Translations under genes and position numbers: made by a program
Shown: piece by piece, positions 28,691-30,793 of the stretch
Layout of the letters: each line of letters opens with the position of its first letter
Numbering within the stretch: position 1 is the first letter of the stretch
Origin: an uncultured Spirochaetales bacterium
GTDB taxonomy: Bacteria > Spirochaetota > Spirochaetia > Sphaerochaetales > Sphaerochaetaceae
Length of the DNA stretch: 34,954 nt
Assembly (NCBI GenBank): GCA_949282255.1
Contig: CASDPA010000022.1
Location: 1-34,954, forward strand
Direction of reading: 5' to 3'
The notes under the pieces: generated by a model
Databases searched by the model: none
Told to the model about the DNA's origin: nothing
What the model saw: only the letters and a program-made list of their open reading frames with translations

Positions 28691-28763
28691 CGCAGGGTAG
28701 AGCAGTTGGCAGCTCGTCGGGCTCATAACCCGGAGGCCGTAGGTTCGAGTCCTACCCCTGCTA
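28691..28763 (+). tRNA. initiator tRNA-Met (CAT)
   Basis: A complete 73-nt cloverleaf. The acceptor CGCAGGG pairs with CCCTGCT except at the first position (C1 x U72), the mismatch that marks initiator tRNAs. The anticodon arm is GGG-CTCATAA-CCC with the three G-C pairs of tRNA-fMet. The T arm is GTAGG-TTCGAGT-CCTAC and the discriminator is A. CCA is not encoded (TCC follows). An ORF reading through it on the minus strand is an artefact. Confidence 0.95.
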
Positions 28764-29168: not shown

Positions 29169-29197
29169 TTGACGATATCGGTCTTTGTTAATATACT
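29169..29197 (+). promoter_or_regulatory. strong promoter of a candidate small RNA
   Basis: TTGACG (29169-29174) and TATACT (29192-29197) are exactly 17 bp apart, each a 5/6 match to consensus. No coding start follows; the predicted transcript enters a highly structured stretch. Confidence 0.7.
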
Positions 29198-29203
29198 TTG
29201 ATT

Positions 29204-29318
29204 GTCGGAAGGTGGAATTCCTTCCGGCGGTAAGGACTTATCACCAGGGACAGCACACGTGACTGCAGACGTGGGAATTGGACCCACCTTCTGATCTCTC
29301 GCTCCTGTCCCTACTTTT
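29204..29318 (+). ncRNA. candidate structured small RNA of unknown class
   Basis: About 115 nt from the predicted start to a terminator-like end. Pairings seen: local hairpin CGGAAGG / CCTTCCG (29206-29212, 29220-29226); long-range CGGAAGGTGG / CCACCTTCTG (29206-29215, 29284-29293, one G-T); GTGGG / CCCAC (29271-29275, 29283-29287); outer AGGGACAG / CTGTCCCT (29246-29253, 29305-29312) followed by ACTTTTAT. The first two exclude each other, so the RNA could switch fold or form a pseudoknot. It does not show the SRP, tmRNA, RNase P or SAM signature sequences I know; a 6S-like RNA cannot be excluded. Confidence 0.5.
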
Positions 29319-29324
29319 ATGTCC

Positions 29325-29549
29325 TCAAAGCACCCTTTGTTCCCACCGTCGTAAATGCACGGGCATCAATGTTCCGGAAGGTATGCCTAGAACTCTGAGA
29401 ACGTATGGAATTTTCCCAATGAGGATAGGGGTATCGGTTTCTTTTTCAACATCTTTTTTTGTACAAAACCCGAGCTTATAAAAAAGTTTGGATAGTTTTT
29501 CTCCATATTGCTGTAATTCTTCAAGGTTTGGGTTGAACAATTTATCCAT
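29325..29549 (-). CDS. small hypothetical protein
   Basis: A possible 74-residue protein, not recognised. The N-terminal half (LEELQQYGEKLSKLFYKLG) would form an amphipathic helix; the C-terminal half is basic. AAGGAG lies about 11 nt before the ATG at 29549; an in-frame TTG at 29558 is too close to it. A gene-like fragment ends just upstream at 29555. It might be a real small gene of the accessory region or a remnant. Confidence 0.4.
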   Translation of the reverse strand: MDKLFNPNLEELQQYGEKLSKLFYKLGFCTKKDVEKETDTPILIGKIPYVLRVLGIPSGTLMPVHLRRWEQRVL

Positions 29550-29554
29550 ATTAT

Positions 29555-29728
29555 TCAAATCTCCTTAACTTCTGTAATTGTGAAATCGGAAATATCCAGC
29601 CCTGCAGGATTGTGTAAAGCCTGTTTTTTTTGTCTTGGATATATGCGGCACAGCGATGATGAGTGTCGGATTTTATCCTTTTCCCGTTTGGAAAAACCGT
29701 TTTTCGGAAGTATATCCGGTATGTTGTA
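29555..29728 (-). pseudogene. possible gene fragment without a start codon
   Basis: Between stops at 29729-29731 and 29555-29557 the minus strand has an open frame of 57 codons with no ATG, GTG or TTG start. Its end, HNPAGLDISDFTITEVKEI, has a protein-like composition and stops within the ribosome binding region of the next small ORF, as in an operon. It could be the tail of a decayed gene; it could also be chance. Confidence 0.25.
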
Positions 29729-29817
29729 TCAGACAGAGGCGATCAATGTTCTCTGTGTTGTCAATATGATGAAAAAGGTCGGAATTTCAGTTACACTTTT
29801 ACTGAAGCTCGGTGAAT

Positions 29818-30201
29818 ATGACGAAGAAGGAAAAGGTTCGGATAATCAAAAAGATCATTTGGGATTACAAAATACAGCCTGAGAAACTGCTTAAGAAACT
29901 GAGCGGGCCTGAATCGGATGAAAAGATCAGGCAATGGTTTTTTGTCAGGACTTTCGAATCTTTACCCTGGCAGAAAGTCGTTGGTTTCTGGGGAGTTGAT
30001 ACTTGCTTAAAAATGGATGAAAAACAGATACGTTCCAAAATAAGGCCGCAGCTGAGAGGTAAATATGACAGGATATACAAACTACTTCGAAGAGAACCTG
30101 TATCCCCTGCAGAATGGGATCTTGAAAGCTATCGACAAATCATCAAGCCCTTTCTATCTGACCGGTGGAACCGCTTTGAGCAGAGCGTATCTTCAACATA
30201 G
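29818..30201 (+). CDS. putative partner/antitoxin of the AbiEii-type protein
   Basis: A 127-residue charged protein beginning MTKKEKVRIIKKIIWDYKI; no domain is recognised with certainty. Short proteins with this kind of helical N-terminus (a KGP/SGP turn, then W/LLxRxxExxP) often precede AbiEii-like nucleotidyltransferases, so it is probably the antitoxin or partner. It does not resemble the winged-helix AbiEi. Its last 45 codons overlap the next gene by 137 bp in another frame, which is exceptional and could reflect loss of an original stop. Alternative start: GTG at 29812. Confidence 0.6.
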   Translation: MTKKEKVRIIKKIIWDYKIQPEKLLKKLSGPESDEKIRQWFFVRTFESLPWQKVVGFWGVDTCLKMDEKQIRSKIRPQLRGKYDRIYKLLRREPVSPAEWDLESYRQIIKPFLSDRWNRFEQSVSST

Positions 30202-30793
30202 ATATTGCGGGGATCTTGATCTGTTTGTAAACGATGATTCGGATTTTTCTTTCCATGTTTCCAAGGTATTGAATATTTTGCGTGATGTTGACGGAATAAA
30301 ACTGGATTCCGATCCCAGCCTCGTGTCCCATGGGTGTGTAAGGACGTATATATTGTCCGGACGGATCAGGATCAAGATCGATTTTGTCAATGACGATTCC
30401 GTACATTTCGGGGCTTTGCGCCGTGCCCCTTTTTTCAGCAGGATTGATTCTCTCCGGAATATTGCGGTAAACAAGTTGACTGCCTTGATAGGCAGAAGCG
30501 AAGTGAAAGATATAGCCGATTTATGGGCCGTCTCAAGAAATTGTTCGTTCAATTGGGGGGATATGATTTCTCATGCCTCGGAAAAAGAAGCATGCATCGA
30601 TGTCGATTACATTTGCGGGGTTTTGGAAAACCATTCGGAAAAAGAATTGGAAGAACTGCCCTGGAGGAACCGTTTGGACTTTTCGGAGGTAAGGAGAAAT
30701 CTTTCTGCCATGTGCGAGGATATGATAAGGCTGGGCGATAACAGTTTGGCCGCCGGGCGCCTGAAAAAAGGGGAGAGGGTTTTCAAGCTGTAA
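30065..30793 (+). CDS. AbiEii/AbiGii-type nucleotidyltransferase (toxin or defence protein)
   Basis: A 242-residue member of the DUF1814/AbiEii superfamily. The nucleotidyltransferase core is clear: FYLTGGTALSRAYLQHRY (G34-G35) followed by CGDLDLFV with D50 and D52 as metal ligands, then KIDFVND, the third-acid strand, and RIDSLRNIAVNKLTALIGR-type helix with the DIADLW motif. Such proteins are toxins of type IV toxin-antitoxin or abortive-infection systems that modify RNA or protein with nucleotides. GAGAGG precedes the ATG. Its position behind a tRNA agrees with an accessory defence module. Confidence 0.85.
   Translation: MTGYTNYFEENLYPLQNGILKAIDKSSSPFYLTGGTALSRAYLQHRYCGDLDLFVNDDSDFSFHVSKVLNILRDVDGIKLDSDPSLVSHGCVRTYILSGRIRIKIDFVNDDSVHFGALRRAPFFSRIDSLRNIAVNKLTALIGRSEVKDIADLWAVSRNCSFNWGDMISHASEKEACIDVDYICGVLENHSEKELEELPWRNRLDFSEVRRNLSAMCEDMIRLGDNSLAAGRLKKGERVFKL

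What the first reader, a model, noticed from the sequence alone, without database searches (positions are those of the whole stretch)
29169..29318. Autonomous structured RNA with mutually exclusive folds in the accessory region
The best-spaced promoter for a non-coding start in the window (TTGACG-N17-TATACT) leads not to a gene but to about 115 nt dense in complementarity. The 5' segment 29206-29215 can pair locally (29220-29226) or with 29284-29293 over 10 bp, and an outer 8-bp stem with a T-rich tail closes the 3' part. Competing pairings plus a terminator-like end suggest a regulatory small RNA or a sensor RNA. No family known to me fits.
Basis: partly seen in the sequence, partly recalled or inferred. 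Interest (0 to 1): 0.65.

Follow-up and report, generated by a model that had tools for sequence, protein, structure and literature searches.

The report
Structured small RNA from conjugative element
A small structured RNA gene, absent from the RNA family database, is kept by a few related bacteria next to a probable RNA-cutting enzyme gene carried by a conjugative element, and it probably keeps that gene in check.

Summary
The RNA gene is real. It has a promoter (29169-29197), about 110-115 nt (29204-29318), and a closing stem with a U-tract. Rfam has no match. Three homologues exist, all in the same genus (4 of 48 genomes; about 790 sampled class and phylum genomes add none).

Comparison supports a functional RNA on the + strand. 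Over 24 core pairs, 97.9% of cells are paired, with changes on both sides in 8 pairs. There are 8 G.U and 0 A.C cells. The promoter hexamers and the 17-nt spacing persist while the spacer diverges. The "mutually exclusive fold" fails: 10/10 pairs in the window but 3-5/10 in homologues.

The RNA always lies beside, or antisense inside, a gene with a MuF_C (PBECR-type predicted RNase) domain, in exactly the same four genomes. In G009 the RNA and gene form a cassette inserted between virB8 and virB9 of a conjugative T4SS operon. Close relatives have no such cassette. In the window, G020 and G003 the T4SS is gone, and in the window and G020 the nuclease domain is gone too, yet the RNA is intact.

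Best reading: an element-borne antisense RNA repressor (antitoxin-like) of the nuclease gene, now an orphan in the window. Expression and function are untested.

The parts
29169..29197 (+). sigma-70-type promoter TTGACG-N17-TATACT of the RNA
   Evidence: hexamers 12/12 and 11/12 identical within the two pairs of homologues while the spacer is 10/17 and 5/17 identical; 17-nt spacing in all four; blastn homology with G003 starts at 29169
29204..29318 (+). structured small RNA, about 110-115 nt (start inferred from the -10 box)
   Evidence: homologues
29204..29228 (+). hairpin 1 (9 bp, 7-nt loop); sequence differs between clades but a hairpin can form in each
29229..29242 (+). hairpin 2 (GGUAA-GGAC-UUAUC), covarying closing pair
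   Evidence: helix 1
29246..29312 (+). hairpin 3: outer 8-bp stem (29246-29253/29305-29312), middle helix GUGA/UCGC (29259-29262/29299-29302), inner covarying hairpin (29268-29275/29283-29290) with invariant loop AAUUGGA (29276-29282)
   Evidence: compensatory changes in outer and inner helices
29305..29318 (+). 3' arm of the outer stem plus U-tract, terminator-like (U-tract present in all four homologues)
29325..29558 (-). remnant of the MuF_C/PBECR-type gene: N-terminal about 66 codons, then an internal deletion that removes the nuclease domain
   Evidence: (44% identity to residues 2-66 of the G009 protein)
28691..28763 (+). tRNA-Met at the edge of the accessory region; flank 93% identical with G003 up to just past the tRNA terminator

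Best explanation
29169-29318 is a complete gene for a small structured RNA that belonged to a T4SS conjugative element. There it forms a two-gene cassette with a MuF_C/PBECR-type predicted RNase gene. The RNA is transcribed divergently from that gene, from a promoter next to the gene's start. It is therefore perfectly complementary to the long 5' leader that the nuclease gene has when it is read from the virB operon (G009), or to the coding sequence itself (G003). Most likely it base-pairs with that mRNA and keeps nuclease synthesis low in the resident cell, as IstR-1, OhsC, SymR and RalA do for their toxins. Shown: promoter-like site, structure, covariation, strand, linkage, cassette nature, and persistence where the nuclease gene is broken. 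Inferred: transcription, duplex formation, repression, toxicity of the protein. In the window the element and the nuclease domain are lost and the RNA stands alone. There it is either an orphan antitoxin-like RNA acting in trans on incoming related elements, or a not-yet-decayed remnant.
For: Four homologues, with RNA and gene in exactly the same 4 of 48 genomes. Covariation: 8 pairs changed on both sides, 97.9% of cells paired, slid controls at most 2 such pairs. Simulated substitutions at the observed level lose far more pairs (P <= 0.005 for window against G003 or G009). Strand test: 8 G.U and 0 A.C cells on the + strand. Promoter hexamers conserved over diverged spacers. In G009 the RNA and gene lie between virB8 and virB9, whereas in G066 the two genes are 1-2 bp apart. 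MuF_C hit 46 bits against a cut-off of 27.6. PBECR domains occur in T4SS elements and are predicted RNases (PMC5512222). Divergent antitoxin RNAs complementary to long toxin 5' UTRs are established for istR-1, ohsC, orz and agrB (PMC4147584). No Hfq or ProQ model match in this genome, which fits extended cis complementarity better than a chaperone-dependent trans sRNA.
Against: No transcript data. Toxicity of the MuF_C protein is unknown, and MuF-C domains can be inactive (PMC5512222). In G009 the RNA lies about 50-160 nt upstream of the start codon and does not cover the ribosome-binding site. A pure antisense RNA need not keep loop and internal-loop sequences (AAUUGGA, GUGACUGC, GAUCUCUCnCUCC) while its stems change, which hints at a protein or trans partner. 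The RNA of the window and G003 differs more (80% identity) than the flanking chromosome (93%), so intactness in the window may be recent arrival rather than selection as an orphan.
Confidence: 0.5

Rival explanations
1. RNA antitoxin that binds the protein: the conserved structured RNA directly binds and inhibits (or is a substrate or decoy of) the PBECR RNase, working like type III toxin-antitoxin pairs but encoded on the opposite strand and as a single unit.
For: Loop and internal-loop letters are invariant while stems covary. The partner gene has a predicted RNase domain. The RNA stays intact where the nuclease domain is lost.
Against: No tandem repeats, opposite strand, no ToxN/AbiQ-type match. 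No binding data.
Confidence: 0.17
2. Transfer-control antisense RNA: like FinP or CopA, it targets the virB operon transcript to limit expression of the T4SS genes downstream (virB9, virB10) rather than the cargo gene; remnant copies could act against incoming related elements.
For: In G009 it is antisense to the operon leader between virB8 and the cargo gene, with virB9 and virB10 downstream. Hairpin plus terminator build.
Against: Related T4SS operons in the same genus (G066, G023) lack it. It follows the cargo gene, not the T4SS. In G003 it lies inside the cargo gene.
Confidence: 0.13
3. Trans-acting sRNA with chromosomal targets, using the pyrimidine-rich GAUCUCUCGCUCC segment to cover Shine-Dalgarno sequences of host mRNAs; the nearby gene is incidental.
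For: Conserved C/U-rich segment; three of four carriers lack the T4SS gene virB8 of this element.
Against: Very patchy distribution (4/48), no Hfq or ProQ model match in the genome, strict linkage to one cargo gene.
Confidence: 0.1
4. A mobile DNA repeat (MITE-like or single-strand DNA hairpin) whose folding is a by-product; the promoter resemblance is chance.
For: Two different insertion positions relative to the gene: upstream (G009, G020) and inside the frame (G003, window).
Against: One copy per genome, conserved promoter hexamers and U-tract, G.U strand bias.
Confidence: 0.06
5. Riboswitch or sensor RNA with mutually exclusive folds.
For: 10-bp alternative pairing in the window, favoured in a 90-nt intermediate.
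Against: Alternative pairing absent in the three homologues; no plausible gene just downstream on the same strand.
Confidence: 0.03

Closest known systems
Type I antitoxin RNAs of divergent loci (IstR-1/tisB, OhsC/shoB, Orz/zor, AgrB/dinQ)
   Same: Small RNA transcribed divergently from the gene and complementary to a long 5' leader without covering the start site (PMC4147584)
   Different: Those toxins are small hydrophobic peptides; here it is a 316-aa MuF_C/PBECR-type protein on a T4SS element, and the RNA keeps conserved loops
SymR/SymE and RalA/RalR
   Same: Antisense RNA paired with a nuclease gene; RalA pairs within the coding region, as the G003 copy would
   Different: No sequence or family relation found; SymE (113 aa) and RalR are other proteins; the RNA here is a three-hairpin RNA with covarying stems
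FinP (traJ) and CopA (repA) antisense RNAs
   Same: Mobile-element antisense RNA of hairpins with a terminator, opposite a leader in an operon (from general knowledge)
   Different: No Rfam match; no ProQ/FinO-domain match in this genome; follows a cargo gene rather than traJ or repA
Type III antitoxins ToxI / antiQ
   Same: Conserved structured RNA next to a predicted RNase gene
   Different: No tandem repeats, opposite strand, toxin not of ToxN/AbiQ type

Membership tests
Type I toxin-antitoxin system | RNA gene complementary to the mRNA of the paired gene | tested here: met
   G009: RNA antisense to the leader between virB8 and the gene; G003: antisense inside the ORF. Complementarity follows from position; an mRNA through this region is assumed
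Type I toxin-antitoxin system | paired gene encodes a toxin | not testable with these tools
   MuF_C domain is a predicted RNase fold, possibly inactive (PMC5512222)
Type I toxin-antitoxin system | toxin usually a small hydrophobic peptide | tested here: not met
   316 aa with a MuF_C domain; SymE and RalR are known exceptions to this usual feature
Type I toxin-antitoxin system | RNA represses synthesis of the toxin | not testable with these tools
   needs expression experiments
Type III toxin-antitoxin system | antitoxin RNA of tandem repeats | tested here: not met
   no direct repeats
Type III toxin-antitoxin system | RNA cotranscribed upstream of the toxin on the same strand | tested here: not met
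   opposite strands in all four loci
Rfam families (6S, riboswitches, RAGATH and others) | covariance-model score at or above gathering | tested here: not met
   only tRNA passes
FinP/CopA-type antisense RNAs | antisense to the leader of a transfer or replication regulator gene | tested here: inconclusive
   in G009 antisense inside the virB operon, but upstream of a cargo gene
FinP/CopA-type antisense RNAs | FinO/ProQ chaperone partner (FinP) | tested here: not met
   no ProQ domain in the window's genome (97% complete); not searched in G009

The most novel reading that the evidence does not exclude
A new kind of RNA-protein conflict module on conjugative elements: a structured RNA that directly neutralises a MuF_C/PBECR RNase, and that recipient chromosomes keep as an orphan after the element decays, giving immunity against the same element.
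Probability: 0.12. Interest if true: 0.75.

Novelty: new member of a known kind. Interest (0 to 1): 0.5.

Why it matters
I know of no RNA partner for MuF_C/PBECR domains, which are predicted RNases that phages and conjugative elements deliver; the literature search here was narrow. If the RNA controls the enzyme, it gives a handle on how such elements avoid poisoning their own hosts, and on whether leftover RNAs at tRNA genes protect against reinfection. At the least it is a small RNA family not in Rfam, with covariation support, in a lineage (probably a spirochaete, inferred from memory, not tested) whose genome shows no Hfq or ProQ match.

Tried and rejected
Rfam at gathering and at E<=10: only chance hits besides the tRNA.

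Wider homologue searches (viral contigs by four patterns and by the protein, plasmids, phages, 395 class and 393 phylum genomes) gave nothing beyond the four copies.

The genome-contig hit L006 is a chance match in a coding sequence.

Weak model hits in G030, G423 and L025 fit only parts of the model; those in G030 and G423 lie in or beside coding sequence; treated as chance.

A leader peptide on the opposite strand was considered: short ORFs can be read in G009 and G020 but in different frames, so coding is not conserved (read by eye).

A tRNA-like reading of the opposite strand (GGTCCAATTCC resembles a T-arm) was dropped: the hairpin is not next to the acceptor-like stem and ARAGORN finds nothing there.

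att repeats of the tRNA 3' end: none in the window besides the tRNA, and one match in L022 that is the tRNA itself.

Full report
Observation. The window has a promoter-like site TTGACG-N17-TATACT at 29169-29197, followed by about 115 nt that fold at -44.9 kcal/mol against a shuffled mean of -33.9 (z -2.8, no shuffle as good). The fold has three hairpins: 29204-29228, 29229-29242 and 29246-29312. The last has an 8-bp outer stem and is followed by ACUUUU. Rfam gives nothing but the neighbouring tRNA-Met.

Homologues. A DNA search of 60 relatives found three more copies, and a pattern search of all 48 held genomes of the genus found the same four: the window, G003:C29, G009:C77 and G020:C6. A covariance model built from them (R1) found no others in 139 family, 395 class or 393 phylum genomes beyond weak partial matches that I judge to be chance. 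Plasmids, phages and viral contigs gave none.

Evidence that it is an RNA. Three of the four sequences fold on their own into the same three-hairpin shape. The fourth (G020) has a different minimum-energy fold but can form all but one of the core pairs. On the model-fitted alignment, 24 core pairs have 97.9% of cells paired, 8 pairs with changes on both sides and 14 such cells; every slid control has at most 2 such pairs. That alignment leans to the structure, but RNAalifold on a plain MAFFT alignment also finds 9 such pairs. Substitutions at the observed level, placed at random, would leave about 23 of 33 pairs between window and G003, against 32-33 observed. All eight wobble cells are G.U on the + strand and none is A.C, so the + strand is the constrained one. 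The promoter hexamers are 12/12 identical between window and G003 and 11/12 between G009 and G020, while the spacers are 10/17 and 5/17 identical, always 17 nt long. A U-tract follows the outer stem in all four. Limits: only four sequences, in two clades, and no expression data.

The alternative fold. In the full RNA it has probability about 0 and costs 7.7 kcal/mol, although a 90-nt intermediate would prefer it. It is therefore a feature of this copy, not of the family, and the switch or sensor idea loses its support.

Surroundings. The neighbouring gene encodes a 316-aa protein in G009 with a MuF_C domain (46 bits, cut-off 27.6) and a weaker PBECR3 match below cut-off. Protein and RNA occur in exactly the same four of 48 genomes, although linkage means these are not independent events. 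In G009 the order on the - strand is virB4, an ORF without a Pfam match, relaxase, T4CP, virB11, virB8, [RNA on the + strand], MuF_C gene, virB9, virB10. In the relative G066, virB9 starts 1-2 bases after virB8, and the same virB9 follows in G023, so RNA plus gene look like an inserted cassette. In G020 only the last virB8 codons, the RNA and 69 codons of the gene remain beside tRNA-Val. In G003 the RNA sits antisense inside an intact 349-aa ORF as an in-frame insert of about 30 codons. In the window the gene is a fragment lacking the MuF_C region, beside tRNA-Met. The window's genome, G003 and G020 have no virB8 of this element.

Mechanism. The RNA promoter lies between the RNA and the gene start in G009, so the RNA is antisense to the leader of the gene when it is transcribed from the virB operon. 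PBECR domains are predicted endoRNases found also in T4SS elements, and the MuF-C domain of phage Mu is thought inactive (PMC5512222). Divergent antitoxin RNAs complementary to long toxin 5' leaders are known, and SymR and RalA control nuclease toxins (PMC4147584). I therefore think repression of the MuF_C gene by base pairing most likely (0.5). The unexplained point is that loops (AAUUGGA) and internal-loop segments (GUGACUGC, GAUCUCUCnCUCC) stay fixed while the stems change, which a purely cis-antisense RNA does not require. This leaves room for a protein partner (0.17), transfer control (0.13) or trans targets (0.1). No Hfq or ProQ domain was found in the window's genome (a diverged Hfq or assembly gaps remain possible).

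Orphan question. The RNA is structurally intact where the nuclease domain is gone, as expected if antitoxin-like RNAs outlive their toxins. But the RNA of the window and G003 is 80% identical against 93% for the flanking chromosome, so the two loci may come from separate arrivals, and recent decay is an alternative to selection.

Verdict. Its class, a mobile-element antisense or regulatory RNA, is known; its partner and structure are new as far as tested.

Noticed in passing
window 29812-30793: Two overlapping + strand ORFs downstream of the RNA: the second matches AbiEii (Pfam 53 bits, also PADLOC), the first (129 aa, no match) has the position of its partner; a possible type IV toxin-antitoxin / abortive infection pair in the same accessory region.
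   Followed up: partly
L041:2139-3500 (-) in G339 and L038:2148-3611 (-) in G019: VirB11-type ATPases of related elements carry intein-like Hint (and in G019 homing endonuclease) domains that interrupt the ATPase at its P-loop.
   Followed up: partly
L003:952-2001 (+), G003: The RNA gene sits antisense inside an otherwise intact 349-aa MuF_C ORF as an in-frame insert of about 30 codons: an RNA gene tolerated within a reading frame.
   Followed up: partly
L002/L003/L004/L005 inner hairpin: G020 pairs a G009-like outer stem with a G003-like inner hairpin, suggesting recombination or exchange of RNA modules between copies.
   Followed up: no
L023:30-980, G188: A CRISPR-like array (repeat near TATTCCCCGCAAGTGCGGGGGTGTTTC) a little upstream of a distant MuF_C-gene relative.
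   Followed up: no
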